A stretch of DNA of 64,000 bases from Mesoplasma entomophilum (lineage in GTDB: Bacteria > Bacillota_I > Bacilli_A > Mycoplasmatales > Mycoplasmataceae), in the NCBI RefSeq assembly GCF_002804125.1, contig NZ_CP024966.1, positions 496,001 through 560,000 of the forward strand. Direction: 5' to 3'. The notes beneath the pieces were generated by a model. The model searched no databases. It was given only the letters and a program-made list of their open reading frames with translations, and was not told where the DNA came from. How positions within the stretch are numbered: the stretch's first letter is position 1; each line of letters opens with the position of its first letter. The position numbers and the translations under genes are program-made. Of this stretch, positions 9,324-61,473 are shown one piece after another.

Positions 9324-9331
9324 TTTTTTTA

Positions 9332-11467: not shown

Positions 11468-11513
11468 AATAAATTCCCTCCTTGATAAAAACCTATTTCC
11501 TAGGTTTGTAAAT

Positions 11514-11556: not shown

Positions 11557-11564
11557 TATTGTAA

Positions 11565-12449: not shown

Positions 12450-12507
12450 GTTTGATCTCCCTTATTCAATGTTAAGATTATAATTCCAAAATTATTAATT
12501 TTCTTTT

Positions 12508-13996: not shown

Positions 13997-14036
13997 TCTT
14001 TTCACCTCATATAGTTATTAAGGAAAAAAACAAAAA

Positions 14037-15092: not shown

Positions 15093-15149
15093 TATTTTTT
15101 AACCTTTTGATTTATTTTAACAAACTGAGTAAAACATAATTTAAAAATA

Positions 15150-15193
15150 AAAAAACCTTTATAAATCATAAAAATTTTGTTTAAAGGTTTTTT
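15150..15193 (-). terminator. Terminator after the arginine deiminase operon
   Basis: AAAAACCUUU and AAAGGUUUUU form a stem around an A/U-rich loop, with a U run, six bases after the arcC stop codon. Confidence 0.7.
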
Positions 15194-15198
15194 ATTTG

Positions 15199-16131: not shown

Positions 16132-16151
16132 ATATTATTTCCTTTCATATT

Positions 16152-17798: not shown

Positions 17799-17816
17799 AT
17801 TTCTCCTTAGAGCATT

Positions 17817-18815: not shown

Positions 18816-18845
18816 ATTTTATAACCTTATCTTTCTTTTATATTT

Positions 18846-20033
18846 TTATTGTTTTAAATCTTCTCTTCATAAAGGCATAGACATACATCTAGGACCTCCA
18901 CGTCCTCTTGACAATTCAGCTGAAGGAGTTTTGATAACTTCAATTCCAGCTTTTTCCATTAAATCAATTGTTACTCAGTTTCTTTCATAAGCAATAACTT
19001 TGCCTGGTGCAACAACTAAATGGTTAGTTCCATCGTTTCATTGTTCTCTACCAGCAGCAATTTCATCATCACCACCACATTTGATTATTTTTACTGATTT
19101 TCCAACTAATTCTGATAAAACATCAATTAAAGATTTTTTAATTTCAGTTTTTCCTTCTGGTGTTATTAAATAAATTTTAAAAGCATCAACATTATCAAAT
19201 ATTAATGGGTGAGCGATAAATTTATCGTAATCCGCATTTGTTAATACTGTATCTAGGTGCATAAATGCTCTTGTTTTTGGTAAGTCTAATACAAGTATTT
19301 TTTTGTATGTTCCTTTTGCAAATACTTCTTTAGACATTCTTTCAATTGCTTTCATGCTTGTTCTTTGTGAAACACCAATAACTAGAATTTCTTTGTTAAG
19401 AACCATGATGTCTCCACCTTCAATTGGTTCTTCTCATTCTCTTTCATAGAAATGCGGCACATCATTGGCAAATCTTGAGTGATTTTTAAACACAAAGTCC
19501 GGGAACAATGTCTCTCTGTTACGAGTTACAGATCACATTTTGTGTAAAGTCACACCATTACCAACTGATGCAAAAGGGTCTCTTTGGAACAATACGTTAG
19601 GTAATGGATCAGCTATGAAAGGATAGTGATTTTCATCATGAATACCTAATTCTATTTTTTTAGTCCCTGCTATCATTTTATTTACCATTTCAAAATTTGA
19701 TAAACTTAATAAATATTTTTTAAATTCTTTAGTGTATTTTTTATCATTGATACCTTCTTTGATAAATTTATTAACAAATTCATCTTTCAAGTTAGGATTT
19801 TGATCTAAAGCTTCAGCCACTAATCTTTCAATGTATAAAACTTCAACCCCTTCTCTTCTTAATAAATCTGTAAATCTATCGTGTTCTTCAATGGCTACTT
19901 TTTTGAATGGAATATCATCAAATAATAGCCTTTCCAATAAATCGGGAACTAAGTTTTCAACTTCATCCCCAGGTCTATGTACTAAAACAGATTTTAATTT
20001 TCCAATTTCTGAATAAACATTAATTTTAGACAT
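18846..20033 (-). CDS. arcA: Arginine deiminase
   Basis: A 395-residue hydrolase converting arginine to citrulline and ammonia. Visible motifs: [14 protein letters not shown] at the start, [32 protein letters not shown] (substrate-binding acid), HLDTVLTN with the catalytic histidine, and the nucleophilic cysteine in [12 protein letters not shown] near the C-terminus. It is first in the arcA-argF-permease-arcC operon. ATG 20033 follows AAGGAAG; the in-frame TTG at 20042 is less likely. A weak promoter (TTGGAA, 17 bases, CAATAA) lies roughly 80 bases upstream. The operon gives ATP and counters acid. Confidence 0.97.
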
Positions 20034-45765: not shown

Positions 45766-45875
45766 AAATAATACCTTTAACCTTATTTAAAGTAGATTAT
45801 AACAAAATAAGAAAAGTATAAGTAACTTTATGTTCTGTTGGGGTAAATTGTTTATTTGGTGCAAAGTGCAAGATT

Positions 45876-45911
45876 TACAATTTCCAGTAGAAATTTACTG
45901 AAAAAATTGTA
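45876..45911. repeat. Hairpin at the left edge of the prophage element
   Basis: TACAATTT, CAGTA, six bases, TACTG, AAATTGTA form an imperfect palindrome ending exactly where the inverted repeat ATGTGAACGT begins. It could be a terminator, or part of the element end. Confidence 0.55.
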
Positions 45912-45920
45912 TGTGAACGT
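45911..45920. repeat. Left inverted repeat of the prophage-like element
   Basis: ATGTGAACGT followed by CTTTTGTTAC. The inverse at 61106-61115 is followed inward by TAATTTTGTTGG. Confidence 0.55.
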
Positions 45921-45991
45921 CTTTTGTTACAATTATTTTATCATTTTTAATAAAAAAGCAACACAAAAATATAGAAATCGTTAAATTTCCA

Positions 45992-46044
45992 TTTTTTGTA
46001 CACTTAGTATCTTTTTTTGTACACAAGGTGCTTTTATTTGTACA
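45992..46044. repeat. Three GTACA iterons with exact 21-bp spacing
   Basis: TTTTTTGTACAC at 45992, TTTTTTGTACAC at 46013 and TTTGTACA at 46037; the GTACA cores lie at 45998, 46019 and 46040. The third overlaps the last codons and stop of the transposase gene. Subterminal position and helical phasing suit protein binding sites. Confidence 0.65.
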
Positions 46045-47437
46045 TTTTATGTTGTTTTATCATGTCAATATGTTTAGCAAACTTAGAATCAGCAAAAGCA
46101 ATGACCCCATTTTTAACTCCATTTCTGAAATCTTTGTTTCTTAACATTCTTCAAGTATGGTGTTTATTTTCAAATGCGTTTATTTCAATTTGAACATTTT
46201 TTTCATGTTTTCAAATATCAAAAGCATTTAAACAATTAATTTTTCCGGCTCTTAAAGCTATTAAATTCTTAAAAGTTTTAACAGCATAAGACTTAGAGTT
46301 ACTTATTGACTTAATAAAATGGTAAACATTAGATTCAGTATAGCAACCATTGTATCAGTCTTCTTGATAAGCAAATATACCTTCTAAATTATTCTTTATA
46401 TATCGAATAGCTTCTTTTAATAAAACTTTCTTATTATCAGTAGCACTATGAGTTAATATCTTTAATTTCTCAATAGCTTTAAAAGGATCTGTTTTTATAT
46501 CTTCCATTATTAAGTTACATAATTGATTTAATCCAGCTGGATTATTTCATTTAGTAAAAGGAAGACCTTTTCTTATCTTTGCTTTCAAGTGAAAGAAGTC
46601 TAAAACTAATTTAGCGTCTAATTCTTCTGCAACTTTTTTAATGTAGTCATCTCCATCACCACATACAATTACTTGTCTTTCTTTATCACCATAGAATTCT
46701 TTAATCTTTTCTTTAACAAGTTCAGCAAACTTTGTAGTTGAAGGAGATCTAGTTTTTTGTTTATTTATTTGGTAAATGATTCTTTTGTGAACTAATTTAG
46801 AATTGCGATTGTCTTTAGTATCTGAAACTCCTAAATAAAGAACCGCTAATCTAACTCTATGCTTTACTGACTTAAGTTTTTCTTCCTCTTCGTCAAATTC
46901 TTTAAGCTTCAAGAATGCATCATCTGTTGAAACATAAACATAATCATAATTGTTTACGTCACTTGGGATTTGATAATCAAGATCAGCTGATATTTCACTT
47001 AAATTCTCAATATCCATTTTTTTTATAATTCTTGAAACTGTGGATTTATCTATTATTGCTCTAGGGTGAGAATTTATTATATCTTTGTATTTCATTCCTG
47101 CTGAAACCTGCTTAAGAATCTTATCAATATATTCATAGCTTATTTTTTGATATTTCTCTAGCTGCAAGTAATCATCAACTAAGCATCTAGTATTTCATTT
47201 ACGATCAATAGAATTTCATATTTTATATTTAGTTCTTTTAAAAGTTAAAACACCTTCACTAGTTAAAATAGTTCTTTTAACATATCCATTAATATAATAT
47301 CCTTCTGCTTTACGCCAATCACTATTCTTAATTTCTAAGTCTAGTTCTTGTATTTTTTCTAGCATATCATCTATTAATAGGTTTAAGTGAAAGTCTTTTA
47401 ATTCATCAAAAACTTCAATTTGATTTATTACTTTCAT
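46034..47437 (-). CDS. UPF0236/ISLre2-like transposase (Mbov_0401 ICE transposase type)
   Basis: A 467-residue protein. The middle holds STVSRIIKK (helix-turn-helix-like), then an RNase H-type catalytic core: VSTDDAFLKLK, VIVCGDGDDYIKKVAEELDA, LVLDFFHLKAKIRK, which match the Asp residues and the D-F-H motif of UPF0236 transposases. The C-terminal third contains NLEGIFAYQEDWYNGCYTES, likely around the last catalytic acid. Related proteins are annotated in integrative elements of mycoplasmas. Start ATG 47437 with AGGAGG; the same 19 bases around this start occur at the other end of the element (61044-61062). It is the last gene of the element. Confidence 0.83.
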
Positions 47438-47471
47438 AGTTGTCCTCCTACATGCTACCATTTTACAAAAA

Positions 47472-47492
47472 AAAGAACCTTGTAGGTTCTTT
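47472..47492 (-). terminator. Terminator of the phage late operon
   Basis: AAAGAACC UACAA GGUUCUUU hairpin plus U run directly at the terminase stop codon; it insulates the transposase from phage transcription. Confidence 0.9.
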
Positions 47493-49212
47493 ATTCAAAA
47501 AGATTGTATCTAAAGTAGCTTAAAGCATGTTCAGCTGCATTAATTGCATCCAATTTATTTTTCTTAGGTGTTTCATCTCTAATGTTCTTTTTAGGGTGAA
47601 GTTTACAATTATGTAATTCATCGTATAAATAGCCATGTTTCTTAATTACTACTTCTACACCTTGTATTTCTTTAGTTACTTTAAGTTCATTAGCAAAAAA
47701 TAACTTCTTCTCATTTAGTAACCTTTTTCACATGTAATGTCTTGATTCAATTTTTCATCCTTTAGAACCAGTTGAAACAAAGCATGTAAAGTTTTTTTCT
47801 AATGTTTCACGTTTATGATCATACTTTCTTTCTAAAATACCTATTAAAAAATCTTTTACTGTTCTAGAATCAGCACCAATTTTAAATCTTATATGTTCCT
47901 CAAATTTGCCTCTACCTGTACCAAATTCGTAATTAACTGTTTTGTCATTAATAAATTTAGCTATACAACTTACTTTATCTTCCATGTTTTTAAACTTCTT
48001 TGTTGATATAGAGAGTTCATCTAAAATGTAAACACCTTTAACAATACCAGAGATAGCATCTAGTTCAAAACCCATTAATATAGTTACTGCATCATCTCCA
48101 CTGTCTCCACCATCAGCATAATCTGAACCGATTCTAATTTGGTCAAATCATCATCTTTTAGTTTCATCATAGTAAAATTTATCTTTACTAAAGAATTGAG
48201 CATTTTCTAATAAATCTTTTCTATATGCATATTTATCTATTTGCATTTGATTTTCATCTCCTTTAAATAAAGTATTGTATGTTTCAGGTCAACGCTGTTT
48301 AATACCTTTGGCTAATTCCATTACTTTAGGGTTTAAGTTATCTTTATTAATTGCTGTAGTTCCACGAATTACTGTTGCCCCCATATTTAAGAATGTAGGG
48401 TCTTCTCTGTAACTAACTGCATTTATGTCTAACTCCTCTTTAACTTCATCAGTTAATGGCGCTATTTCATCCATAAACATTTGATAAATAGGGTGATTAG
48501 TGTCATGATTATTAAAACCGAAAATAATATAATGTTTCTTATACATTTGTCATGTTTCATTTTTATTAAAAGGCAAAGGTATTGTTCCTTTAAGTTGTGG
48601 CAATGGTTCAAAGCATGTAGTTAAGTTTTTACCACGCACAACTTGAGTCATAAGGTTTACCAACTTATAAACATACTCAGCTTCATCAATTATTTCTTCA
48701 CCTAAAGGAATAACCTCATCAATAGCAAACATTCCTATTTCACCAATTGCAGCAGGTACACCTTCTCATTTACTTGTGTTATCAAAACCTATAACGTTTA
48801 TTTCTCTGCCATTTTCAAAGACTCATCCACATTTAGATTCAGAGTTGAATTCTTTGATAAGTGCATTTTTATTTTGTCCTATTTGCTCAATAACAGTAAC
48901 ACCATAATTCTCATGAAGAAAGTTCATTACTTTTTTCATTGTTTTAAAATAGCTTTCTTTAGCTGATGCATAAGTATATTTAGCTAACTGAGCGTTATAG
49001 TCCTCAAAATTACATACAAGAAATAAAGCTAGTAAACATATTAAGAAAGTCTTACCAAATCCTTTAGCACCTGACATTGCATGGAATAAACTTTTAGTGC
49101 TGAATGGTTCTTTAAGTAGATCATTTCAAACTCTGTCCAAAACGTCAAAGGTAAAATTAAAATTATTTTCAGTTGGCTTTAGGTCTTTCCATTTAGTTAT
49201 TTTATGTTCCAT
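47491..49212 (-). CDS. Phage terminase large subunit
   Basis: A 573-residue DNA packaging motor and nuclease. The ATPase part has MSGAKGFGKTFLICLLALFL (variant Walker A G-A-K-G-F-G-K-T) near residue 47 and the Walker B MFAIDEV around residue 160. The nuclease domain begins at IRIGSDYADGGDSGDDAVTI (Asp residues) and ends HPKKNIRDETPKKNKLDAIN, whose Asp would complete the metal site. About ten tryptophans are UGA. ATG 49212 lies behind a repeated promoter-like motif. Unusually for a tailed phage it is last, not first, among the structural genes. Confidence 0.9.
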
Positions 49213-49231
49213 GTGTTTCTCCTTGATAGAG

Positions 49232-49260
49232 TAATACATAACAACATTTTTTAAAATTGC
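49232..49260 (-). promoter_or_regulatory. Repeated phage promoter-like motif before terminase
   Basis: On the minus strand TTGC, A/T-rich stretch, AAAAAATGTTGTTATGTATTA. The 21 bases at 49232-49252 are identical to 58960-58980. TTGCAA and TGTATT could serve as -35 and -10 with 18 bases between. Confidence 0.55.
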
Positions 49261-49270
49261 AATAAAAAAG

Positions 49271-49287
49271 AAGGATTAACCCTCCTT
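49271..49287 (-). terminator. Terminator after the 168-residue phage membrane protein
   Basis: AAGGA, seven bases, UCCUU hairpin followed by CUUUUUU, just upstream of the terminase promoter motif. Confidence 0.65.
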
Positions 49288-49299
49288 AAATATATTTCT

Positions 49300-49806
49300 T
49301 TAATTAATTGAATCTAAATTACAGCATTTAAAATTAAAATAAAGTTCTATTATTTTTGATTTACTTTTAATTTTAAACCTATGTTTAACTTTTCTTTTAT
49401 TAAAACTGCAACAATAAAACATTCAATATATTTTGCGCATCTCTTCATAGTCAGTAACTTTTTCTCTCACTCTTGTATCTTTTATTGAAGAAAAACTATC
49501 TTGCTTTTTACAAATACAACAAATTCAATAAAAATTTTTATTAACATGTCTTTCAACAGTATTAACATTTTCTTCAAACTGAAGCAAATAATCTATAAAA
49601 TATTTTACATATTCTCCATTTGATAATTGCATATTTATTTGAAGTCCAAGATGACGTAAATTCTTTTTAAAATCTTCACTATGCTTAATATAAAGTTTTT
49701 CTGCTTCGTTTGAATTATTAATATAATAGAGAACAATAGGAAAAATAACAGCAACTAAAATAGAAGTTGCAGTTAAAACAGAAGTTATTATTTCAGATGT
49801 ATTCAT
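49300..49806 (-). CDS. Phage small membrane protein with cysteine-rich tail
   Basis: A 168-residue protein. An N-terminal membrane helix (residues 5-30, IITSVLTATSILVAVIFPIV) is followed by a basic helical region. After the UGA tryptophan at about 94 the tail contains ICCICKKQD, WMFYCCSFNKRK and KCCN, giving eight cysteines in 70 residues, an odd density for a cytoplasmic mollicute protein; metal binding is possible. It stands alone between the long palindrome and the terminase gene. No family recognised; a lysis or exclusion role is a guess only. Confidence 0.6.
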
Positions 49807-49824
49807 TTTTACTCCTTAAAAATT

Positions 49825-50053
49825 TGGGTGGCTCAAGCGTTCATAAGTTTTTATTCATGACGGAAATAAAAAATTTTGCTTGCGGGGTGTTCTAATTATA
49901 AAGAGAACTCTACAATAGATAAATTTATACATAAATCACATTACATATAATTTATGTATTATAAATCTATTCTCTTACAAAATTAAACAGGAGTCAAGTA
50001 AAATCTTTTTGTTGACGGTAAAAATAAAAATACTTTACGCTTTTACGCCACCC
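49825..50053. repeat. 229-bp imperfect palindrome with GC-rich ends
   Basis: Outer arms GGGTGGC (49826-49832)/GCCACCC (50047-50053) and AAGCGT/ACGCTT; middle arms AAGTTTTTATT/AATAAAAATACTT and ACGG/CCGT; further in TTTTGCTTG/CAAGTAAAA, TGTTCTAATT/AATTAAACA, AGAGAA/TTCTCT; centre ATACATAAAT (49927-49936)/ATTTATGTAT (49950-49959). The left half and the reverse of the right half align along nearly all their length. No open reading frame. Confidence 0.75.
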
Positions 50054-50077
50054 GCCTACTCCCTTGTTTTTTAAAAA

Positions 50078-50103
50078 AAGAGTAACTGCAATTAGCTACT
50101 CTT
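50078..50103 (-). terminator. Terminator of the phage lipoprotein gene
   Basis: AAGAGUA...UACUCUU stem with UUUUUUU following; the stop codon lies in the stem. Confidence 0.8.
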
Positions 50104-50476
50104 TTATTATAGGTGTTGGAGGAAATCCAAAAAGACTTGTGAAATATAAAGTATATTCTTCAATTGATCCATATCATGGTTTAGTTGTTCCTTCACCATC
50201 TCAATTTAATTTTGTCCCATCTTTAAAATAAAAATATATGGAAGTACTAGTATTTAAATAAGTTTCTTTAAGACTGTAATGGTCTAAATTCGATTTTTTA
50301 AATGAAGCTATTATATACTCATCTTTCATTACAAAATTTTTTCCTTCTTTTTGTTGTGCAACATATGCTATGTATTCTAAAACAACAATTTTTTTTTCTG
50401 AAAAACAACTAACTGTTGTTGGAACAGTTGATGAAAAAACACTTAAACCAGATAAAGCTAATAAAATTTTTTTCAT
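50096..50476 (-). CDS. Small lipoprotein within the prophage
   Basis: A 126-residue protein with a signal peptide (KKILLALSGLSVFSSTVPTT) ending at VSC, a lipobox-like site at residue 24. The mature part is about 100 residues with aromatic, probably beta-rich sequence (SIYFYFKDGTKLNWDGEG). It sits between a large virion-type gene and a terminator. Phage-encoded lipoproteins often alter the surface of the lysogen or block superinfection; that role is inferred from context only. Confidence 0.65.
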
Positions 50477-50494
50477 ACAACCCCCACTTGTTCT

Positions 50495-52690
50495 TTAAAT
50501 AATTATATCTCTAAAATTATTATAACTGCTATATTTATCAAATAAATTAAGTTTTAAATTAATAATGTTATCAGCAATAAATTCAATTGATCAGGTACCC
50601 ATACCAAAGAAAGAAGAAATTATTATTTCTTGAATATTTTGTGGATCATTGAAATAAAATTTACCTTCATTTTCAATATACTTATTTGTTAGTGGATTAA
50701 AATAAATGTTACCTGAACCATATTGATCAATCATAATTTTAAAATTATCTTTATTATTTGTAAAACATTTCATCTGATATTTTGAAAATTCTCCATTTGC
50801 TAATTCCTGGTCTGAAGGAATCGAACTTGGTATAGAAGCTGATTCCGTAGTTTTAGTTAATTCAGGAAAAGCATAGTGATTATAATCTAGTTTATAAATT
50901 TCATTATTTGAAATATTTTTATTTTTAGGTTCAATTCCATCTTTTGTGAAATTAAAATAATTTGATTTTAATCTCACTTTAATATCTTCGTAAGAAACAT
51001 ATTTACTAGGATTATCAATCTGATAAGTCATTTCAAAATAATAAGGTAACAATATTTTATAATCATCATTATCACCTTTATTTATAGAAAAATTGGATTT
51101 TAAAGTTCCCGATAGCATGGCAAATATACCTTCAATTCTTTTAATTAAATTTGGATTTGCATTTACAATTTTTCTATTTATGCTTTTTCAAGCCAATCAG
51201 TTATTAGTTGTTACCGAATATCTATCTTGTCCTGAATATTTTTGATTCAGTAAATATATATCTTTGTCTGCTATTGTTTCTACACTTTGTCCGCCGTTTA
51301 TTTCAATTTTTGTTGCACCTTTAAATTCATAGTCCTTTCAAAAAGATTCTGTTAACATTTGTAAAACAACTTTTACAGCTGTATCAATATCTTGTGCACC
51401 TGGTGAATTATAATTTACTTTATATGAATTTTCATTTCTGTATTCAGTGACATTTCAAACATGTTTCCTATGGTCAACAAAAGAATTAGATTGGGGATAT
51501 CATTTGCAAGTTAATCTTAAATTATTGCTTGTCTTAGACAATTCACTTATTTCAATTTTTGAACTTCTTGTATAACGGCTTTCTTGCATTGTGCAAGTTT
51601 CTCATTCAGGGTCTTCAGGGTTTATAGCACTATATACTGTAAAATTATTACCTGAAACTTTTTTTTCAGCTTCAAGTTTTTGTATGCCTTCAATGCTTAT
51701 TGTTTTTAATGAAGGATCTTCTTTTGAAAAAGATATAAACTTAGCTAATGAAAATTCTTCATCATAATTAACTCCCAAATCATCTAAATAAGAAAAAATA
51801 TCTTTCAATGGTATTATTTGATCACTACTTCAGTAATCTATAAGATTTAACGTAGGTGTGGTTTGAAAAGGAAAAGTAAGTTTTTTAAAAACATGTGTGT
51901 CTTTATCAGCAACTAAATCAGGAAAATGTCCTTCTTCATTAACTGGCTTAATGTTTCCAACTAACGTTCCTAAGGGAGTTTTAACACCTAGACCTTTAAT
52001 CTTACCTTTTATAGGTTCTGAATTAACAATTATTAGAGGTTGAGCATCATATAAGCTAGTAAACTCATCAATAGGTACAAAGTCAATGTCATATTCATCT
52101 TCAGTAGAATTATATGTTAGTCTTTGGTTTAAATATTTGGGTACTGAGTCAAAGTTTTCATCAGTTAATTTTTCTTCAGTAATTAAATAAAGTTTATTAA
52201 TATCAAATAACTTCATTTCTTTTTCCAATGCTGATGCATATTCTTCTATTTGCTCATCTTCTCAATCTTCAATTTCTTTATCACTTAATTTAAGTAAGTC
52301 AGCATTAAAGTCGAATACCCCACTAATTCTTTTACTATTCTTAATTAATTGCTCACTAAAGTTAGCAGGATCAGTAAATTCGTTTAATTCATAAGTTGAA
52401 TCTTCCTTCTCCATAAATAATTGAATCTTAATCACTTTATCAGGTGTTGTACACATGATAGTTGTTTTCTCTTTAGCTATTCGAATACCTTCAGTTAATT
52501 CTCTACCTGTTAATGTTGTTAAAGGGTAAAAATAAAAGTTTTTAACTTCACTACCTAAATAAGTTAGTTCTTTTAAGTAGTCTTTTTTTTGATAACGTTT
52601 TAATGCAGAAAATGATGCTATAAATTCAGCATCACTATTTTCTTTTAATTCAGTTTCAAATTCTTCTAAGTAATCCTTGTTGATCATCAT
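50495..52690 (-). CDS. Large phage protein, probably structural
   Basis: A 731-residue protein, continuous when UGA is read as Trp (e.g. after EIED and after NLIDY). Start ATG 52690 follows GGAGG and overlaps the portal gene by 35 bases. The N-terminal third is charged (DYLEEFETELKENSDAEFIA); the middle has PLIIVNSEPIKGKIKGLGVK and TPLGTLVGNIKPV; the C-terminal half is Asn/Tyr/Ser rich, as in tail or receptor-binding proteins. No membrane segment. Position directly after portal suggests a head-tail, tail or adsorption protein. Family unknown. Confidence 0.7.
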
Positions 52691-54077
52691 TTGTTTCCTC
52701 CATGTTATTTGGTGTTGATGCTAATCCTATTGATGCATCACTTGTTCCTAATTTTGCTTGTTGAATAGTTTGGTTAACATTCTTATCTGTTGTTAAGTCA
52801 AAATCAATATCTACTACTATATCTTCTAAATCAAATTTGTTTAATGTATCTAATTCTTGTATGTTACATTCTTTTAATACTTTTAAGAATTTGTATGCAA
52901 AGTCTTTTAAGAAATCTTTAACAAACATTTTCTCACGCTCTAATTGAGGTGAAGTTAAGAATTGTCTAGCTACAATTTCAGAACTTGACTGTTGAGCTGA
53001 TTTAATTTCATCAAAACTTGGCATCCCAACGTCTTCTCTAAGCTCTTTTAACAATGTGTTTCGTGTATCTTGAACTGTCTTCATTGTAGAACTAGGTTGA
53101 AACACAACTACATTGTCTGATAGGTTAATTAGTTGGCCATCCATATCAATTGGTGCAAACTGCACAAACGCATCATTTAATAATTTACTAATAAAGTCAT
53201 AATTATCTTTACCTTGAGTTGGAGTTGTTACTGGTGAACCATTAAACATAATACCGCCACGTTCTCAAACAGGGGCTATTGCTAAATGCTCATCATATTT
53301 ATCTAAAACTTTCAATCTAGTTTCTACCGCACTCATTCTAGGTGATTCTAATGCATTGTTTTTTAATACACAAACTGGAATAAAATCATAATTTAATTTA
53401 ATTTCTTTAAAATGATCTCTTCAATCACTTTCTCAGTTTTCCTGTTCTAGTAATTTACCTTTTTGATAAATTGAGTAAGTCATTGTAACAGTTTTATCTT
53501 TATTTAAAATATAAGTTCTTCTTAATGTTGTATGTTGTTTACTTGATTGGAAAGAAAAGTCTTCATATTCAACTTCAATTTTAGTAATAACGTCATTTAT
53601 AGAATTTTTATAGATTATTTTAACTGGCATAATATTTGGCTCTGTTTCACTAAAAGTCATAATTGATCTACCTGTTATTTCTTTAGTGATTAAGAAACCA
53701 TAAGAACCATAAGTTCCAGACTTAAATTTAGCTGTATTAAATTTTGTAGCTCAACCTTTGTTTTGTAAATACTTTAAAAAAATTTGAAGTAAAGCATCTT
53801 GTACTTCACCATTTCTATTTGTTAATACAAACTTAAATGTACTAGGGTCAAATAAATCAGCAAAGTATTGATTAATCAAATTTGATTTTTCTTTAGCTGT
53901 GTTTATAACTAAAGAATTTTTATAAATCATTTTTAATAAACCTTCTGCTTCTTTACCTTTAAACACTTCGCCAGAAGTATTTGCAACTTCCATTGATGCT
54001 TGAGAATCTGCTTGAGTTTGTCTTTTAAATTCTTCATTCAATTGTGCTGCTGTTTTTTTCTTTGGGTTTGCTGGCAT
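52656..54077 (-). CDS. Phage portal protein
   Basis: A 473-residue protein, inferred to form the ring through which DNA enters the capsid. Features consistent with portals: an N-terminal unstructured part (NPKKKTAAQLNEEFKRQTQA), a beta-rich wing with long paired strands (IKIEVEYEDFSFQSSKQ region), the stretch YDFIPVCVLKNNALESPRMS, which occupies the place of the conserved portal N-n-x-x-G-x-S segment, and a C-terminal helix-rich stem with SSSEIVARQFLTSPQLEREK. Its stop overlaps the next gene. Assignment rests on size, pattern and location next to capsid and terminase, so moderate to good. Confidence 0.72.
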
Positions 54078-54080
54078 ATT

Positions 54081-54329
54081 CTATTTTCCTTTCTCTAGTA
54101 ATCTATCCAGTTTTTTATTAACTTCTTTAATATCTTTTCTAATTAAGTCAATATGTTCTTTTGTATTATCTTGTTTAATTTCAAGCGCAATAATTTTGTC
54201 TTTATTTTCTTGTGACAGTTGTTCAATTTGTTTCTTTGTGTCCTTTTTATGAAAAGTACTTATTAAAGAAGCAAAACCAGCAAACATTGCTGATATAACT
54301 GCTACTACTAATGCTGCTATTGATTCCAT
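54081..54329 (-). CDS. Holin-like small membrane protein
   Basis: An 82-residue protein. One membrane helix at residues 4-26 (IAALVVAVISAMFAGFASLI) is followed by a highly charged coiled coil (KDTKKQIEQLSQENKDKIIA ... EVNKKLDRLLEKGK). Small size, single N-terminal span and location between tail and portal genes resemble holin or XhlA-like proteins. In a wall-less host no endolysin is needed, and none is seen, so it may instead be a virion or exit protein. Confidence 0.6.
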   Translation of the reverse strand: MESIAALVVAVISAMFAGFASLISTFHKKDTKKQIEQLSQENKDKIIALEIKQDNTKEHIDLIRKDIKEVNKKLDRLLEKGK

Positions 54330-54344
54330 ATTATTTATTCCTTT

Positions 54345-55793
54345 CTAATTTAATTTGAATATATGAAGTTCACAAGTGTCAGAATCTAGTTGAGGCTTGT
54401 TCACATCACTTTTTGTGTATTCAGCTCAACCTTGATGTATTCTAACTCCTCTGGCATAACCAGCCTTATTATTTAAAGTATCAGTAACAGTGCTTATTTC
54501 AGCAAAAGAACCATTCTTTCCGACAATATTAAATGATCCTGCCATCTCTCTTCCAAAAAAACTTGGAAAGTGAACCCCTACGTAATAAATGGTATTAAAA
54601 TCCAAATCTAAACTTTTATTTTCACCAGTTTTTAAAGTTACGCTTTTAACAAATTCATAAGTTTTTTTTGATTGTATATCCTTAACAGATGTCCACAAAT
54701 TATCAACTTGAATTTGGTGATCACCAATTTTTTCTTTTAAAGGAATCAACTCCGTTTTATTTGCTTTATCTTTAATTGTTGCTATATCCGCAACATTATT
54801 ATTTAAAGTTTCTAAATCTTTCTTTTGTTCTTCTGTAAGTCCAGCTCTATTAACAAAATCTTCATCTGCTCTTAATTTTTTGTAAGTTATATTTCCTACA
54901 TTTTCATTGAATGAATCAATCAATGAAATTTCTTTAGCTACTTCAGTTTGAAAGTCTTTATTTGATATAGCTAATTCTTTAATAGCATCTAAAACTTTAG
55001 TATTTTTTGCCATTAATTCTTCAATAGCTTTTTGGAAGTCCTTATTATTTGAAATTAATGTCATTAAAGTATTTTTAAAAGCATCATTGTTTGCAAGAAT
55101 TATTGCTACTTTGTCTTGAAAGTCTTTATCAGTACCTAATCTATTAAATAAGTAATCTTTTAATTCTTTATTATCACCAACCATAGTAGCAATAATATTT
55201 CTGAATTCTTCATCTTTTTTAATATCTTCTTTTATTATGTCTTTCATTTTAATAATGTAATTATCCTGTTCAGCTATCAATGTATCTATTTCATTTTTGT
55301 CATAGAATAATGCTGGATCAAGTAAGAAAGGTATTCCTTCATTTTCACAATATGATCTATATAATGTTTGAATGCTTGACATGTTGAATGCTCTTCATGC
55401 CATTGTTCCAACTAATTGCTCAACTGATGAAAGTGTTGTTGTAGAAGAATCGGTTCTTCCATTATTTAAGCTTGTTTGGTTTGTTCTTACAGTTTCATTA
55501 ATTTCCATGTCATTCATGATTAAGAAATCGATTGCTAAGTAAGTAAAATGAATTAAGTATTTTTGTGTATTCTCGGGTAACTGTTTAGTGTTAAAAATAC
55601 GATCAATAATACCTCCTACTTTTTGATTAGCCATTTCTTGTGCTAAATATGCATTCTTATTAAAAAACTCTTCTCCAGTTTTATAACCTATTTTTTGCAT
55701 ATAAGTTGTAAGGCTCTTTAATCTAGAACCTAAGGGTCATTTATTCACATAGTCTTCATAACTAGTGATATCTCATAATTTGTTATATTGCAT
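54345..55793 (-). CDS. Tail-fibre-like coiled-coil phage protein
   Basis: A 482-residue protein from ATG 55793 to TAG 54345. Residues 1-140 are a globular N-terminus (YNKLWDITSYEDYVNKWPLG ... SSVEQLVGTMAWRAFN) that may attach to the virion. Residues 170-310 hold repeats of about 20 residues with DKDFQDKV, NKDFQKAI, NKDFQTEV and NDAFKNTL, predicting an alpha-helical trimeric stalk. The C-terminal 100 residues (KTYEFVKSVTLKTGENKSLD ... YARGVRIHQGW) look like a beta-rich tip. This is the design of tail fibres; receptor unknown. The start overlaps the previous gene by 11 bases. Confidence 0.68.
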
Positions 55794-57426
55794 GTTTTAT
55801 CTGCACCACCTTTTTTATTGTTTTTTTTCTTGTATGATTTGCTATATCATTTCTAGCTCATGTATTATCTCAACGTCCTTTTTTGATTGATTTAATAACT
55901 GATGAACTAAATATCATTCCACCTGGAACAAATGAAATAGCATTATTTATGCTTTTATTTATTATTTTATTTTTTTGTTTATTTGTTTCTTTTCTTGTTT
56001 TGGATTTTACAGACTCTAAAAAACCTATTCTAAGTATTGTTTTTAACACTCTAACTTTTGTTTGAAATCTTCTTATTTCTTTGTACACTTTTCTAGTCCC
56101 AGGTGTTAATAAAGAAAGCATACTTAATTTAGATTGTCTAAATCCATGACCTAAAGCAAAGTTTTCATTATAGTAAATATCTTGATTATCAGCTAAAGCA
56201 AATTCTTGAACTTCTTTTAAGTTACTTCAAACTCTTACAGAATTGTAGTTACTAATTCTAGTATCTTTTTTTCACTTATAAGGTTTCTTTCAAATATGTA
56301 ACATACCTGTGCCATCAATTCCTGTCATTTCAAATTTATATGCTAATAAGAATGATTTTTCTTGACATGGTATTAAATTATACTTTTTAACTATATCTTT
56401 ACCTATTTTGTTTAGTTTAGGAAAATACTTGGCAACCGCTGTCTGGTGTAATTCCTTTATAGCGTCTTCTAATGGCTTTGTAGCATCGTTAACAAGTTTA
56501 TTCGCTCAATAGAAGGGATTTAGTTTTTTTGCCTTGTTTTTGAAAGATTTAAGGTTCTTCTTATATGCAACTAATAAAGTATCTTGAAACTTAGACTGCA
56601 TTCTTAAATTATTTAATTCTGCTAAAGTATTATTACCTACTTTTGTAGTTGATAATTTCGTAAGTGCATTGAAAGCTTCTAAATCATCAAATCTCAAAAA
56701 TTGATCGTAACTAACGTTTAATTCATTTTTTAAAATTAAATCTAATTTAGAGGTTTTAACTGTTGTTTTAGCATAAATTAAACTAGGATTAATTTGCTGA
56801 ATAACTCTTTGTATTTCTAAATAACTTTTTAGTTGATCATAAGTTAAGGACTTAATCTCTTTTTTCATAGAAGCATTTGATACTTGAAATATACTTGCTA
56901 GTATTTGAGCATCTGTTACTGTTTTACCAAAAGCTATTTTTGTTTGGTCTTTTAGAATAACGTCTTTTAAAGCTAATTGATTTGACAATTGGTAAAAGTT
57001 TTTAATTTGACCTTCAATGCCTATTTCTTTAAGTATTCCAGACTGATTAACTAATTTTAATAATTTGTCTTCTTTTAAAGCTCTACCAATCTTTCCTATA
57101 TCTGTTACTGCAAATACTGCATTAAAGATTAAATTTTGAGTAGTAACATCATTTCTAACTGCATCAAAGAAAGTAGAAACAGCAAAATTAACTGTTGTTT
57201 GAATTGCTGAAGAGGCTATTGCAGAACCTAACTGAGTTAAACCTGCACCAGCAACTGCAGCTGATCCAACTCCCGCTGTTGCTATTCCCGCTGTAATTGC
57301 TAAAACTTGTATTAAGAAAATTCCCCAAAAAGAATCAAAAAATGCTTTTTGTTCATTCTGGGGATTAACATAAGTTATTTTCTTTTTATACGTAACAACC
57401 TGATTAGGCTGTAACTTTCTTGGCAT
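55783..57426 (-). CDS. Phage internal virion or ejection-type protein with hydrophobic segment
   Basis: A 547-residue protein. Residues 32-90 are rich in Ala/Gly and hydrophobic (FLIQVLAITAGIATAGVGSA, AVAGAGLTQLGSAIASSAIQ), able to insert in a membrane; the remainder is helical and basic, with several long stretches lacking motifs and a strongly basic C-terminus (KKTIKKVVQIKHAI). It follows the capsid gene and precedes the fibre gene. Proteins with this profile in podoviruses are ejected into the cell membrane to form a DNA channel. Role inferred from profile and place. Confidence 0.6.
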
Positions 57427-57443
57427 GGTGTTTAAATCCTAAA

Positions 57444-58499
57444 TTAAGCTGGTTTTTCTTCACTAGATGAAGCATTATTTTTTTTGTTTTTAACTACTTC
57501 TTTTTCTAGTGATTCAACTTTTGCTAAAAGTTCAGCTTTTTCTTCTTCAACTTTATTTTTTTCTTCTTCAGATAATTGAATATCTTCTTTAGCAATTGCT
57601 AATAAGTTTTCAAGTTCTTTTATTCTTTCTTTTGTTTCAATTAAGTTATCTTTGAATGATTCATTACCTGTATCAGCTACTGGAATACCAATAACCATTT
57701 CAGGCATTGCTACGTTTGAACCGTAAAATTCATTAACAACAGTTGCAATTTGACCAATAAAGTTACCTTGTGTGTATTCATAAGATTGCAATTCTGTATG
57801 AATTGCTAATGCTCAGGCGTATGCTTGTGGTGGCAATGCAATGAAGTCATAACCTAATTTATGAATAGGTGCAACAACAACGTTGTAACCTAAAACTTCT
57901 GTAATTTTAACTGAAGTATTTTCAACATTTCTATCAACACATTCTAATTTTGCTTTAATGATCATGTTTCTAACTTTTGGAGAAATAAAAATGATTGCGT
58001 CTTCTAAAGAATATTTTCTTTCTTCTGCTTCACTTTCAAGTTCAGTAAAGAAATCTACAATTGTATCTTTGTTTAATTCTGCTGGAGCAGTAATTTTTTT
58101 AGAAACTCCTTCAGCAATTGCTTTTAAAGTATAAGTGTCTAATTCTTGCCCTTCTTGTAAAGTTATTGTTTTAGCTTTATTACCAGCTCATGTTGAAGGA
58201 TCAGCTGGGACATTAGCCTTATCAATTTTTGTATGTGAGTTAAAAATTTGATTTAACTCAACTTCCACAACTTTTTCGTGTGAATCTGTTACTGGAATAC
58301 CATCTTCTTGTGATCAGGTTTTTCCAGTTTTAGCTAAAAGCATTAAGGGCATTAAAACTTTTGATTTAAACGCTCCACCTTCTTGTCGTAATTCATTTGC
58401 AAATATTGGGTAGTATTTACCACTTTTTAATAAAGATTCAAACTTTCAAGTATCAGAGTAAATCTCATTAATATGATCTATATTTATTTTTGATGCCAT
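57444..58499 (-). CDS. Phage major capsid protein
   Basis: A 351-residue protein. It follows the acidic assembly gene directly, the normal place for the capsid gene. ASKINIDHINEIYSDTWKFE opens the chain; the central part (EAEERKYSLEDAIIFISPKV, VLGYNVVVAPIHKLGYDFIA, LPPQAYAWALAIHTELQSYE, GNFIGQIATVVNEFYGSNVA) has the pattern of an HK97-like fold, where the P-domain contains ISPKVRN and VGxNVV-like motifs. An unusual C-terminal coiled coil of about 75 residues (EEEKNKVEEEKAELLAKVES) follows. It probably is not cleaved. Confidence 0.75.
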
Positions 58500-58515
58500 A
58501 TATTATATTTCCTAT

Positions 58516-58932
58516 CTAATTTATTTTTTTGTTTTTTAAATTTATTCCTAAATTCATAATAATTTTTTGTTTTTTTTCTTCAGGCAATGCATTAATTCGC
58601 TCTAAAGCTTGTTCTGCATTTATATTTGCCCGAAATCTTTGAATTATACCTCAAAGTTGTTCTTCTGTTAAACCAAACTCATTTAATCTTTGTCTTCATG
58701 ATTTTTGTTCAACAGGGTCTGGGTTGCTGTCTGCAGCTTCTTCAATAATTTCATCAACTTCGTCAACACTATCTGTGCTTTCATCAAGAACTTGATTGTC
58801 TTCTGTAGAATCTGTAGAATCTTCATCAGAACTTTTAGCGTCTGGGACTTCAATTTCTTCAAAAAGGTATTGACCATTTTCGTCAACCATTTCGTTTCCA
58901 TTTTCGTCTAGTTTAATAACTCTTCTTAACAT
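58516..58932 (-). CDS. Acidic capsid assembly (scaffold-like) protein
   Basis: A 138-residue protein, very acidic from residue 8 to 78 (Asp/Glu/Ser runs such as SSDEDSTDSTEDNQVLDEST), then a helical C-terminus (LTEEQLWGIIQRFRANINAE) with basic end. Acidic, low-complexity proteins directly upstream of the capsid gene are usually scaffolds. ATG 58932 follows GGAGGTG at rather long spacing. It opens the capsid operon behind the repeated promoter-like motif. Confidence 0.68.
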
Positions 58933-58959
58933 AATTTTCTATACACCTCCAAGATGAGT

Positions 58960-58988
58960 TAATACATAACAACATTTTTTGAAAAAGC
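58960..58988 (-). promoter_or_regulatory. Repeated phage promoter-like motif before the capsid operon
   Basis: The 21 bases at 58960-58980 are identical to 49232-49252. On the minus strand TTGCTT, spacer, then TGTTGTTATGTATTA, 28 bases before the scaffold gene. Confidence 0.55.
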
Positions 58989-59006
58989 AATAGAAAAAAG
59001 AAAGAA

Positions 59007-59318
59007 TTATTCTAAAATTCCTTCTTTTGTTCATTTTGTTATGTTATCTATAGCTGCAAAGTTTCCTGTAGCTGTTGGATACCATATATTTACAAATTTT
59101 CCTTTAACACTAATAACGTCTCCAATTTTTAGATCCATCATTTCATACATTATTGATTCTTGTTTAGCATAAGCAAAAATTGTTCCACCTTTAAAGCCTA
59201 TTTTAATTTCTAAACTAAGTTCTTTGTTTTTGTCCTCTTTAAGCTTAGGTATTGTTCTAACGTCTCCCATAATCTGAATTTTAGCTCATGTGTCTTGCTT
59301 AGTCATTTTTTTTATCAT
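59007..59318 (-). CDS. Small phage protein, OB-fold-like
   Basis: A 103-residue protein. The pattern of beta strands (WAKIQIMGDVRTIPKLKED, LSLEIKIGFKGGTIFAYAKQ, MDLKIGDVISVKGKFVN, AAIDNITKW) resembles an OB fold as in single-strand DNA-binding proteins; LKIGDVISVKGKF is close to the SSB strand KGxxVxVeGxl. It begins 20 bases within the resolvase gene's end. Role in phage replication or recombination is likely but not proved. ATG 59318 is chosen over ATG 59306 because of the GGAAGGG site. Confidence 0.5.
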
Positions 59319-59793
59319 GTTTCTTTTCCCTTCCTAAAAAGTTCTCACAACTTCAACCATAAACTTCCTCTTTAAAATGAGCCATCATTATTACTTCTGC
59401 ATCTAATTCATGATCACTATAATTTCTTTTTGTTTTTTTCAAATTTGCTTTTAATGTTCTGTCTTTATGATTAGGTTGATGACCTTTAAATTTTTCTCTA
59501 TAAACATATTTAAGTATTCCAACTAATTCTCTAGTTGCTTTAACTTCTTCTCATTTTTCTATTCCTTTATGGGGAACTTCTACTATTACTTCTTTAATAG
59601 ACAAATCATCATACTTGTCTTTAACTTTATTAATATAATCTATTATCTTAATAGCTGCTTCTACTGGACTATTAGCTTCTATATTAGTATTTCATGTTCT
59701 TGGTCAATATGTAGGATTTCATTCTTTAATAACTATACCTGTAGTTCCTATACCACTAGGATCTATTCCTACTACTATTTTCTTTTCTTTCAT
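59299..59793 (-). CDS. RuvC-like Holliday junction resolvase of the phage
   Basis: A 164-residue RNase H-like nuclease. First strand KIVVGIDPSGIGTTGIVIKE with the catalytic Asp at residue 11, a second acidic site in EVIVEVPHKGIEKW, and the C-terminal pair in YSDHELDAEVIMMAHF. Order and spacing match RuvC/Poc-type phage resolvases. It would cut branched DNA before packaging. The host genes ruvA and ruvB lie in the window but mollicutes as a rule lack chromosomal RuvC. Overlaps the OB-like gene by 20 bases. Confidence 0.78.
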
Positions 59794-60080
59794 AAGTTAT
59801 ATTTCTTTCTACTCATGAACGTTAATTAAATTATAGAATAGGGTTTTTCAAAAATAAAGTTTCTTTTCGAAGAAAAAGAAATTTATAGTTGTCTCATTGA
59901 ATACTAACTAAAACCTTAGTGAAGTACTTATTAAATACTAATTGAAATTTTAAAAGTTAAATTTGCTGCTAAATATTAAATTTGTTATTAAAACAAGCAA
60001 CAAAAAAACCATTAGTTAAAACTAACGCTTATTTTTATGTGTTAAATGATTAATTATTTATTCGCTAGTACGTTTTCAAA
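59794..60080. other. Phage intergenic region before the resolvase
   Basis: About 287 A/T-rich bases. A TATAAT box on the minus strand (59835-59830) with weak -35 would serve the resolvase gene. AAGTTTCTTTTCGAAGAAAAAGAAA at 59858-59882 is a small palindrome (TTTCTTTTC/GAAGAAAAAGAAA). The terminator at 60002-60025 is listed separately. No open frame of note. Confidence 0.5.
60002..60025 (-). terminator. Terminator of the phage early genes
   Basis: UUAGUU UU AACUAA stem, then UGGUUUUUUU, about 55 bases after the stop of the 94-residue gene. Confidence 0.65.
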
Positions 60081-60365
60081 TTATCATTCAATATCTATAT
60101 TTTTATCCATTACAAATTCATTTTTAACTTCTTTAGGAGGAGACTCCTTATCCTTACCTTCTTTGTCTAGATATGATTTAGTAACAAGTTGATCTAACTC
60201 TAAATTTACTTCAGATACTTTAATTTCTGTTACATTAAATTCTTTTTGCATTTTAATAATGTTTCTTACTTGAGTAGCTGCTTTATCTTTAATTGTTTTA
60301 AGACCATTTTTGATTGAAGCTATTAACTGTCTTGTAAAGTGAGCGCAGATATTCATTAATTCCAC
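60081..60365 (-). CDS. Small phage protein, unknown (94 residues, GTG start)
   Basis: Start is uncertain: GTG 60365 or ATG 60356. The frame is open back to the stop of the preceding gene (13 further codons, KQLACKALGFNH) but holds no earlier start codon. The N-terminus is helical and basic (HFTRQLIASIKNGLKTIKDK), and the C-terminus acidic. Might be a DNA-binding or regulatory protein; nothing firmer. It ends with tandem UGA (Trp)-UAA. Confidence 0.5.
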
Positions 60366-60407
60366 TAAATGATTAAAACCTAATGCTTTACATGCTAATT
60401 GCTTATA

Positions 60408-60668
60408 TTACCCTTTTTCTCATATATATGAATATGATCATTGCATAAAATCTTTTTTTGGTATTCAAATATAGAAGTACTCTTTTTCATTATTGTTGTC
60501 AGTAACAAACTTTTTAGGCACGTTAAAACTTCTTACAACATTGCCATCTTCTGAAGGGACAATTATTCTAAGAGTATCTTTAGTTGAACGTTCTTTATCA
60601 ACTAGTCTTCTAGCTATTGGTACATTTCAACCTTTAATAGCTGCTTTTTTAACTTTTGTCTGTGCCAT
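60408..60668 (-). CDS. Small phage protein, unknown (86 residues)
   Basis: ATG 60668 to TAA 60408 with four UGA tryptophans, three clustered at the end (PKKDFMQWSYSYIWEKG). Basic N-terminus (AQTKVKKAAIKGWNVPIARR) and a beta-rich middle (LRIIVPSEDGNVVRSFNVPK). Short gap to the upstream gene, so one operon. Function unknown. Confidence 0.6.
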
Positions 60669-60701
60669 ACTGTTTCCTACTTTCTATTTTCTAAATATTT
60701 T

Positions 60702-61049
60702 TTAACATTTGAATTTTTCCTCAGTGTAAAGTTCATTAAAAAGCTCTTTACCTAATAAGTCTTCTAGTTCTAAAACTCCGTTGTCTAGCTTAAGTAATTC
60801 TTTTACTGCTAAATCAATTGCTTCAGATAACTTAGTTAATTTAAAACTAAGCTGAGGTATAGTTCATTCTTCAATGTCCAATCTTTCTTCATTTTCTACA
60901 AATTCTACTTTTAGTTTCCTTTTTAAAAATCTAATTTCTAATTTTCCTTTTTCTATAGTTTTATTGCTAAGATAAATAAAAATTCTTAGACCTATTATTG
61001 AATACTCAGTTTCACCTGTTATTTTTTTGTAATATTCTTTAAATTTCAT
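60702..61049 (-). CDS. First gene of the phage operon, unknown (115 residues)
   Basis: A soluble 115-residue protein: a basic first half (KFKEYYKKITGETEYSIIGL, KLEIRFLKRKLKVEF) and an acidic, leucine-rich helical second half (LSEAIDLAVKELLKLDNGVL). ATG 61049 follows AGGAGGACAACT. The leader contains an exact complement of this ribosome site. As the first gene inside the right end it may be an early regulator or replication protein; I do not recognise it. Confidence 0.62.
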
Positions 61050-61155
61050 AGTTGTCCTCCTATGATTCTTTAAAAATTAAATTCTAACAGCAACCAACAA
61101 AATTAACGTTCACATAATTTTATAAAGAGGACAACTCTTTTTGATTTGTTGGCTG
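61050..61155 (-). promoter_or_regulatory. Phage leader with sequence complementary to the ribosome binding site
   Basis: On the minus strand AGTTGTCCTC (61136-61127) is the exact complement of GAGGACAACT (61059-61050), which includes the Shine-Dalgarno of the first phage gene. AGUUGUCCUC can also fold locally (AAAGAG UUGUC CUCUUU). CCAACAAA (61150-61143) pairs with UUUGUUGG (61100-61093), closing the region. Confidence 0.55.
61106..61115. repeat. Right inverted repeat of the prophage-like element
   Basis: ACGTTCACAT, the inverse of 45911-45920, with AATTTT following outside. Confidence 0.55.
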
Positions 61156-61174
61156 GTATTAGGACTTAATTAAA

Positions 61175-61200
61175 AAAGAACCCTTCCAAAAGAGTTCTTT
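61175..61200 (-). terminator. Terminator after the broken lipoprotein gene
   Basis: AAAGAAC, 12 bases, GUUCUUU with U run on the minus strand (nearly symmetric, so it may act in both directions). Confidence 0.6.
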
Positions 61201-61216
61201 TCTTATTTTGCACTAA

Positions 61217-61473
61217 CTATTCAACTTGCCCGTTCTGTTGTTTCATAAGCAATAGTAGCCCAGCATCAATAATGTATTTTACCGTTGTTTTATCAGACAT
61301 TTTATTATTTGGATTTTTAGTGTTAAATGCTGCAGTAATAGTTGGTGCCTCTTTATATTTTAGCTTTCCTAAACTTCAAACAAATGTTACTTTTCATTAC
61401 TACATGAAACAGCAAAAAAAGCACCTGTTGCTGTTAAAACAATTGTTTCTAAAATAGATAATCTCTTTTTCAT
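61217..61473 (-). pseudogene. Broken lipoprotein gene
   Basis: ATG 61473 encodes a lipoprotein signal peptide (KKRLSILETIVLTATGAFFA, lipobox VSC) and stops after SNEK. In another frame the text continues as FVWSLGKLKYKEAPTITAAF, NTKNPNNKMSDKTTVKYIID to a stop at 61217. One frameshift splits it. The signal peptide resembles that of the intact 742-residue lipoprotein. It lies just outside the right end of the prophage-like element. Confidence 0.7.

What the first reader, a model, noticed from the sequence alone, without database searches (positions are those of the whole stretch)
45911..61115. A compact prophage that may move by a DDE transposase
Capsid, portal, terminase and fibre-like genes are enclosed by 10-bp inverted ends (ATGTGAACGT). 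A UPF0236/ISLre2-like transposase is the last gene, and no tyrosine or serine integrase exists. Mu-like phages use a different transposase family, and mycoplasma ICEs are known to carry Mbov_0401-type DDE proteins, so a small podovirus-like phage using that machinery would be a new combination. Terminase being last rather than first also departs from usual phage order. About 15.2 kb and no polymerase gene.
Basis: partly seen in the sequence, partly recalled or inferred. Interest (0 to 1): 0.85.

Follow-up and report, generated by a model that had tools for sequence, protein, structure and literature searches.

The report
Small prophage that moves by transposase
A 15.4-kb virus genome sits in a tiny wall-less bacterium, and its exact ends, target duplication and empty sites show that it was inserted by a jumping-gene enzyme of a type so far credited to insertion sequences and mycoplasma conjugative elements, not by a normal phage integrase or Mu's enzyme.

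Summary
The phage and its DDE transposase are real. The 10-bp repeats exist but are internal; the true ends lie 70-116 bp further out. Comparison with a second complete copy in a sister species places the element at 45841-61231 (15,391 bp). It has ~25-bp inverted ends (19/25 identical) and a perfect 9-bp target duplication, GTTCTGTTG. Joining the flanks rebuilds part of a lipoprotein gene found in a relative. Three more members of this phage lineage have empty sites in congeners. The transposase is an Mbov_0401-family (Mutator-like) DDE enzyme: 293 bits against a cut-off of 162, D180/D269/E376 invariant. Portal, terminase and HK97-type capsid are supported; no integrase was found. A second Spiroplasma phage lineage (MaM-2019a-like), known from purified particles, has the same transposase family and shows 8-bp duplications in 4 of 4 testable copies. 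Its virion-derived contigs carry the two ends joined through 5 bp, which points to a circular intermediate rather than Mu-style packaging. In close relatives of the window phage the same gene slot holds an IS3-family transposase with matching ends, so the module has been swapped. The combination had been annotated (MaM-2019a) but, in the sources I could read, not explained.

The parts
45832..45840 (.). target-site duplication, left copy (GTTCTGTTG)
   Evidence: sequence; identical to 61232-61240
45841..45866 (+). right-end terminal inverted repeat (transposase side), GGGTAAATTGTTTATTTGGTGCAAAG
   Evidence: conserved in G005a, G005b and a solo fragment in G005; G031 has GAGTAAGTTTTATTTTAGTAGGAAA
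46034..47461 (-). Mbov_0401-family DDE transposase, 475 aa (467 from the internal ATG); D180, D269, E376
   Evidence: NF046004 293.5 bits, cut-off 162; triad invariant in 27 of 27 homologues
47491..49239 (-). terminase large subunit, 582 aa
   Evidence: PHROG 2, E 1.1e-10
49300..49806 (-). predicted membrane protein, 168 aa
   Evidence: 82% identical in G005a
50096..50476 (-). small predicted lipoprotein, 126 aa
   Evidence: signal and Cys in sequence; homologues at the same place in G031, G040, G027
50495..52690 (-). 731-aa conserved protein, putative tail or adsorption protein
   Evidence: 42-51% identical in the lineage; function inferred
52635..54077 (-). portal protein, 480 aa
   Evidence: AlphaFold model matches 80alpha/SaPI1/SPP1 portals, Foldseek E 1e-9, VIA Z 18.7
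54081..54329 (-). 82-aa protein with an N-terminal hydrophobic segment, holin-like (inference)
   Evidence: sequence; homologue in G005a
54345..55793 (-). coiled-coil, fibre-like protein, 482 aa
   Evidence: conserved N-terminal part, variable C-terminal part in the lineage
55783..57426 (-). 547-aa structural or internal protein
   Evidence: 40-83% identical to its homologues in the close lineage
57444..58499 (-). major capsid protein, 351 aa, HK97-type
   Evidence: PHROG 422 E 5e-4; Foldseek matches to phiM1/HRP29 capsids, E 8e-6
58516..58932 (-). acidic 138-aa protein, scaffold-like
   Evidence: position and composition; inference
59007..59318 (-). SSB-like small protein, 103 aa
   Evidence: conserved in the lineage; function inferred
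59299..59793 (-). RuvC-like Holliday-junction resolvase, 164 aa
   Evidence: motif and conserved position; MaM-2019a carries a gene annotated RuvC by its depositors; function inferred
60081..60668 (-). early gene interrupted by one in-frame TAA (86 + 94 aa); intact in G005
60702..61049 (-). 115-aa early protein, first gene of the element
   Evidence: homologue in G005a
61106..61115 (-). internal 10-bp repeat ATGTGAACGT, second copy
61207..61231 (-). left-end terminal inverted repeat, GGGCAAGTTGAATAGTTAGTGCAAA
   Evidence: identical in G005a; 19/25 identical to the other end
61232..61240 (.). target-site duplication, right copy (GTTCTGTTG)
61241..61473 (-). lipoprotein gene remnant split by the insertion (its last codons lie before 45840)
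   Evidence: tblastn of the G001 lipoprotein to the joined flanks

Best explanation
Window 45841-61231 is a tailed prophage that is also a transposon. Its terminal gene encodes an Mbov_0401-family (prokaryotic Mutator-like) DDE transposase that acts on ~25-bp inverted repeats at the two ends of the whole phage genome. It inserts the genome at loosely chosen sites with an 8-9 bp target duplication (shown by ends, duplications and empty sites). For leaving the chromosome, the best-supported route is the one known for mycoplasma ICEs: one end attacks next to the other and produces a circle in which the two ends are joined through a few bases of flanking DNA. That circle is then replicated by the host, helped by phage RuvC- and SSB-like proteins, packaged by the phage terminase, and is the substrate for the next insertion. 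The circle step is inferred here from the related MaM-2019a phages, not shown for this element.
For: Ends and duplications: window copy with 9-bp duplication and inverted ends; G005 copy G005:733981-750018 with AACATTTA, 8 bp; G031 copy with TTGCATTTA, 9 bp. Chance of a 9-bp match at fixed borders is 2.6e-5. Empty sites: joined window flanks align to a G001 lipoprotein gene, with ATIAYETTEHKVTYT reading across the junction; the joined G005 site is contiguous in five congeners, including the window's own genome; contiguous but divergent matches for G031 in several congeners. Transposase family: NF046004 at 293.5 bits; triad invariant; no integrase hit. Second lineage: four G020 copies with 8-bp duplications and GGTAGT ends. 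Circle: both MaM-2019a virion contigs contain end-5 bp-end (ATAAT, ATTTT). S. poulsonii MSRO has a tandem junction end-TTTAT-end, and the spacers ATAAT and TTTAT equal the 5 bp beside the left end of resident copies. Family precedent: 18-39 bp IRs, 8-9 bp repeats, circles with 6-10 bp of flank (PMC3942029).
Against: No reads, excised form or virion was available for the window's phage. One early gene carries an in-frame TAA, so this copy may be defective. The spacer in the MaM contigs is 5 bp, slightly shorter than the 6-10 bp reported for the family. The tandem S. poulsonii pair shows no simple duplication at its outer borders. Only G001 keeps a recognisable lipoprotein at the window's empty site; the other congeners differ there.
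Confidence: 0.88

Rival explanations
1. A Mu-like life cycle: the same ends and transposase, but the phage replicates by repeated replicative transposition and packages genomes together with host DNA from many sites.
For: A DDE transposase at one end, random-looking sites, and six or more similar copies (mostly over 99% identical at the ends compared) of the related phage in G020.
Against: Virion-derived MaM-2019a contigs contain the two ends joined through 5 bp instead of host DNA. No MuB-like ATPase was recognised among the ten main proteins scanned, and the transposase gave no rve (MuA/IS3-type) Pfam hit. Target duplication is 8-9 bp; Mu makes 5 bp (own knowledge).
Confidence: 0.08
2. A passenger insertion sequence: an ordinary phage that lost its integrase, beside which an unrelated IS happened to insert.
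For: The enzyme family is widespread in Spiroplasma, also away from this phage type.
Against: The only inverted ends found bracket the whole phage, and the target duplication lies outside the phage, not around the transposase gene. The transposase is conserved with the phage (87% window vs G005, 38% vs G031) and these form one clade, support 0.991.
Confidence: 0.02
3. A transposable element that captured phage genes and keeps them as a relic, or a satellite that needs a helper phage for its particles.
For: Small size, no polymerase, one interrupted early gene.
Against: Portal, capsid, terminase and the large structural genes are open and conserved in order across several genomes. Related transposase phages were recovered from purified particles (PMC12453411).
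Confidence: 0.08

Closest known systems
Spiroplasma phage MaM-2019a (OL689226, OL689227)
   Same: Tailed-phage genes plus a transposase of the same NCBIfam model; RuvC and recombination genes; no integrase annotated. Related chromosomal copies in G020 show inverted ends and 8-bp duplications.
   Different: Different lineage: gene order and orientation differ, transposases are 22-27% identical, terminal repeats have another sequence. The depositors annotated the transposase; a role in insertion was not stated in what I could read.
Mycoplasma integrative conjugative elements (p-MULT 5 / CDS22, ICEA, ICEHo)
   Same: Transposase family, position of its gene next to one inverted repeat, 8-9 bp duplications, no integrase (PMC3942029, PMC7466169).
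   Different: ICEs carry a type IV secretion system and move by conjugation; this element carries portal, capsid and terminase.
Phage Mu and other transposable phages
   Same: A temperate tailed phage integrated by a DDE transposase at many sites.
   Different: Different transposase class, 8-9 bp instead of 5-bp duplication, evidence for circles in relatives.
ISLre2 / TnGBS (p-MULT 3)
   Same: Related transposase (79 bits to NF033529) with similar inverted-repeat and duplication lengths.
   Different: Below the family cut-off of 200 bits; not a simple IS; promoter-directed insertion not tested.
phiMAV1 / phiMFV1 mycoplasma prophages
   Same: About 16-kb prophages of mollicutes with compact, mostly one-strand gene order.
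   Different: The review reports their own integration and excision genes (PMC7466169); no terminase match to any annotated phage record was found here.

Membership tests
Mbov_0401 / p-MULT 5 Mutator-like DDE transposases | Family profile above curated cut-off | tested here: met
   NF046004 293.5 bits vs 162
Mbov_0401 / p-MULT 5 Mutator-like DDE transposases | DDE triad | tested here: met
   D180, D269, E376 invariant in 27 of 27
Mbov_0401 / p-MULT 5 Mutator-like DDE transposases | 18-39 bp terminal inverted repeats with a terminal C, transposase gene beside one of them | tested here: met
   25-bp ends starting 5'-G (3'-C on the other strand); gene 46034-47461 next to the 45841 end; criteria from PMC3942029
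Mbov_0401 / p-MULT 5 Mutator-like DDE transposases | 8 or 9 bp target duplication | tested here: met
   9 bp (window), 8 bp (G005), 9 bp (G031), four of 8 bp (G020)
Mbov_0401 / p-MULT 5 Mutator-like DDE transposases | Circular intermediate with a few bp of flank between the ends | tested here: inconclusive
   Not testable for the window copy; 5-bp junctions seen in MaM-2019a virion contigs and in an S. poulsonii tandem
Mycoplasma ICE | Type IV secretion / conjugation genes | tested here: not met
   None among the ten main proteins of the element; it carries head and packaging genes instead
Tailed phage (Caudoviricetes) | Portal, HK97-type capsid, large terminase | tested here: met
Tailed phage (Caudoviricetes) | Forms particles | not testable with these tools
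   no experiment; particles reported for the MaM-2019a relatives (PMC12453411)
Mu-like transposable phage | MuA-type (rve) transposase and 5-bp duplication | tested here: not met
   no rve hit; 9-bp duplication
ISLre2 insertion sequence family | NF033529 cut-off; element of one gene | tested here: not met
   79.3 bits vs 200; 15-kb element
Integrase prophage | Tyrosine or serine recombinase | tested here: not met
   none in Pfam scan of the ten main proteins

The most novel reading that the evidence does not exclude
Mollicutes harbour transposable tailed phages that are not Mu-like. At least two phage lineages run lysogeny with a Mutator-like (Mbov_0401) transposase through a circular intermediate that is also the packaging substrate. 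Within one lineage this module has been exchanged for an IS3-family transposase with its own matching phage ends, so the lysogeny enzyme is an interchangeable IS-type cassette.
Probability: 0.65. Interest if true: 0.86.

Novelty: new variant of a known kind. Interest (0 to 1): 0.8.

Why it matters
Transposable tailed phages are usually equated with Mu and its MuA transposase. Here a different, IS-type DDE transposase family has taken over the job of the integrase in two phage lineages, and in close relatives an IS3-type enzyme has done so. The 2014 survey of this enzyme family found its p-MULT 5 members only in mycoplasma ICEs (PMC3942029). Integrase-based prophage searches would not see such phages, and insertion at many sites makes them mutators and repeat seeds in reduced genomes. 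It makes testable how a transposition circle is coupled to phage replication and packaging, and how lysogeny modules are swapped.

Tried and rejected
(1) The ATGTGAACGT repeats as element ends: rejected, conserved sequence extends beyond them and the duplication lies at the outer ends. (2) Ambiguous N bases at 35-42 of OL689226 as a variable circle junction: rejected, the true junction is at 123-127. (3) Terminase homologues in annotated phages and IMG/VR: none. (4) Sequence profiles against solved structures for portal, terminase, capsid, transposase: nothing useful. (5) Exact ends of the IS3-type relative G010: an imperfect inverted repeat was found but no duplication; left open. G040 has IS3-type ends around the whole phage but no clean duplication. 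(6) The window's right flank in congeners other than G001 is too divergent for a base-level empty site. (7) The paper describing MaM-2019a particles (Ramirez et al. 2023, cited in PMC12453411) is a subscription paper and I did not read it, so whether its authors proposed insertion by transposition is unknown to me.

Full report
What was checked. The window lies in an 848-kb, one-contig mollicute genome that reads TGA as tryptophan. ATGTGAACGT occurs exactly twice, in inverted orientation, at the coordinates given, against 0.05 expected. The genes between are all on the minus strand: early genes, a RuvC-like and an SSB-like protein, an acidic scaffold-like protein, capsid, a 547-aa structural protein, a fibre-like protein, portal, a 731-aa protein, a small lipoprotein, a membrane protein, terminase, and last the transposase.

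Identity of the phage genes. The terminase matches PHROG 2 at E 1e-10. The portal has no sequence match, but its model is closest to portal proteins (80alpha, SaPI1, SPP1, T7; Foldseek E 1e-9, VIA Z 18.7). The capsid has weak PHROG major-head hits, 4.8e-4 for the window protein and in up to three of six homologues, and a low-confidence model whose best matches are HK97-type capsids of small podoviruses (E 8e-6). No integrase was found among the ten main proteins.

True ends. In the same genus one other genome, G005, carries a complete second copy plus fragments. Aligning the copies shows that conservation continues outward from the 10-bp repeats to GGGTAAATTGTTTATTTGGTGCAAAG on the transposase side (45841) and GGGCAAGTTGAATAGTTAGTGCAAAATAAG on the other side (61231). 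These are inverted repeats of each other (19/25). Immediately outside both, the window has GTTCTGTTG, a perfect 9-bp direct repeat. The G005 copy (733981-750018, 16,038 bp) has an 8-bp repeat AACATTTA.

Empty sites. Joining the window flanks with one copy of the 9-bp repeat gives a sequence that aligns with a lipoprotein gene beside the same ABC-transporter gene in G001; the residues ATIAYETTEHKVTYT read across the junction. The joined G005 site is contiguous in G006, G004, G000, G001 and G002. The element was thus inserted with exactly these borders.

The enzyme. The transposase scores 293.5 bits to NCBIfam Mbov_0401 (cut-off 162), 79 bits to ISLre2 (cut-off 200), with D180, D269 and E376 invariant among 27 homologues. 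The G031 and MaM homologues hit Pfam UPF0236. A survey of this superfamily describes 18-39 bp inverted repeats with a terminal C, 8-9 bp direct repeats, circles with 6-10 bp of flank, and reports the p-MULT 5 group only in mycoplasma ICEs (PMC3942029). In G005 both full-length copies of this transposase sit beside the terminase; none stands alone as an IS.

The lineage. Terminase and portal searches over 60 genomes of the family found relatives in Spiroplasma-type genomes, several with the same gene order. G031 has an Mbov_0401 transposase after the terminase, matching inverted ends (GAGTAAGTTG...GTAGGAAA) and a 9-bp duplication TTGCATTTA, with contiguous though divergent empty-site matches in congeners. 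In G027, G040 and G042 the same slot is occupied by an IS3-family transposase (218, 180 and 154 bits to the IS3 model, cut-off 160; rve domain); G010 has an IS3-type enzyme (130 bits, below the cut-off) as terminal gene but a different gene order. In G027 a 24-bp inverted repeat (23/24) brackets the whole 14.9-kb phage, with a 3-bp duplication GTA; joining the flanks restores the end of a PTS gene that is uninterrupted in most congeners. In G042 a perfect inverted repeat brackets a 6.4-kb deletion derivative. In terminase, capsid, 547-aa protein and portal trees G031 groups with the IS3-bearing G040/G042 (support 0.92-0.98), while its transposase groups with those of the window and G005 (0.991). 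At least one exchange of the transposase module must have happened; the 731-aa protein tree differs, so recombination is also present.

A second lineage and the mechanism. MaM-2019a is represented by two ~19-kb contigs from Spiroplasma poulsonii NSRO; phage-like contigs of this size were assembled from DNA of purified particles (PMC12453411). They carry an annotated UPF0236/transposase gene. Related prophages in G020 are present in at least six copies; the four whose two borders could be compared have GGTAGT ends and 8-bp duplications AAAAAAAC, ATAATTTT, TAATTTCT and AGAATTCT. Both virion-derived contigs contain the two ends joined through five bases (ATAAT in P1, ATTTT in P2). In the S. poulsonii MSRO chromosome one end-to-end junction with TTTAT is present as a tandem, and the spacers ATAAT and TTTAT equal the five bases beside the left end of resident copies. 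This is what a circle made by attack of one end next to the other would leave, as in mycoplasma ICEs. It argues against Mu-style packaging from the integrated state. A packaged tandem array could also contain such a junction, so the circle is the most likely but not the only reading. That the window phage does the same is inference from shared enzyme family and end structure.

What is shown and what is not. Shown by sequence: phage genes, enzyme family, ends, duplications, empty sites, two lineages, module exchange. Inferred: circle formation and packaging in the window's phage, roles of the small proteins, short tail, function of the internal ATGTGAACGT repeats. One early gene of the window copy is interrupted by an in-frame TAA, so the copy may be defective; intact homologues exist. 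A Mesoplasma florum study reported a strain-specific cluster of 17 genes with a tail-fibre gene and spiroplasma homologues (PMC5893858); whether it is the same phage was not tested.

Noticed in passing
G027 (L083/L093), G040 (L085), G042 (L082), G010 (L087): Relatives of the window phage carry an IS3-family transposase as terminal gene, in G027, G040 and G042 in the same slot after the terminase; in G027 IS3-type inverted ends bracket the whole phage.
   Followed up: partly
L082/L126 (G042), IR at 14192 and 20556 of the joined stretch: A 6.4-kb deletion derivative (731-aa gene, lipoprotein, terminase, IS3 transposase) lies between perfect inverted repeats, like a non-autonomous phage transposon.
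   Followed up: partly
L182, L188, L190 (S. poulsonii MSRO, 1868241-1904044): MaM-P1-like prophages in tandem, joined end-TTTAT-end, beside capsid-gene sequence of a P2-like phage: nested and tandem phage transposition.
   Followed up: partly
L088 (G032), 8496-19901: Fibre, 731-aa and lipoprotein genes of this phage lineage occur as repeated cassettes, possibly an array for switching adsorption proteins.
   Followed up: no
window 60081-60668: Early gene of the window phage is split by an in-frame TAA; intact in G005.
   Followed up: yes
L023 (G005:212000-228000): A second, divergent Mbov_0401 transposase lies next to several small phage-like or ICE-like genes; another candidate mobile element in the sister species.
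   Followed up: no
window 45911-45920 and 61106-61115; also G005: The internal ATGTGAACGT pair is conserved in both complete copies of this genus although it is not terminal; its role is unknown.
   Followed up: partly
G009:17123, 368862, 435903: Three Mbov_0401 transposase copies of equal score in one genome; element type not examined.
   Followed up: no
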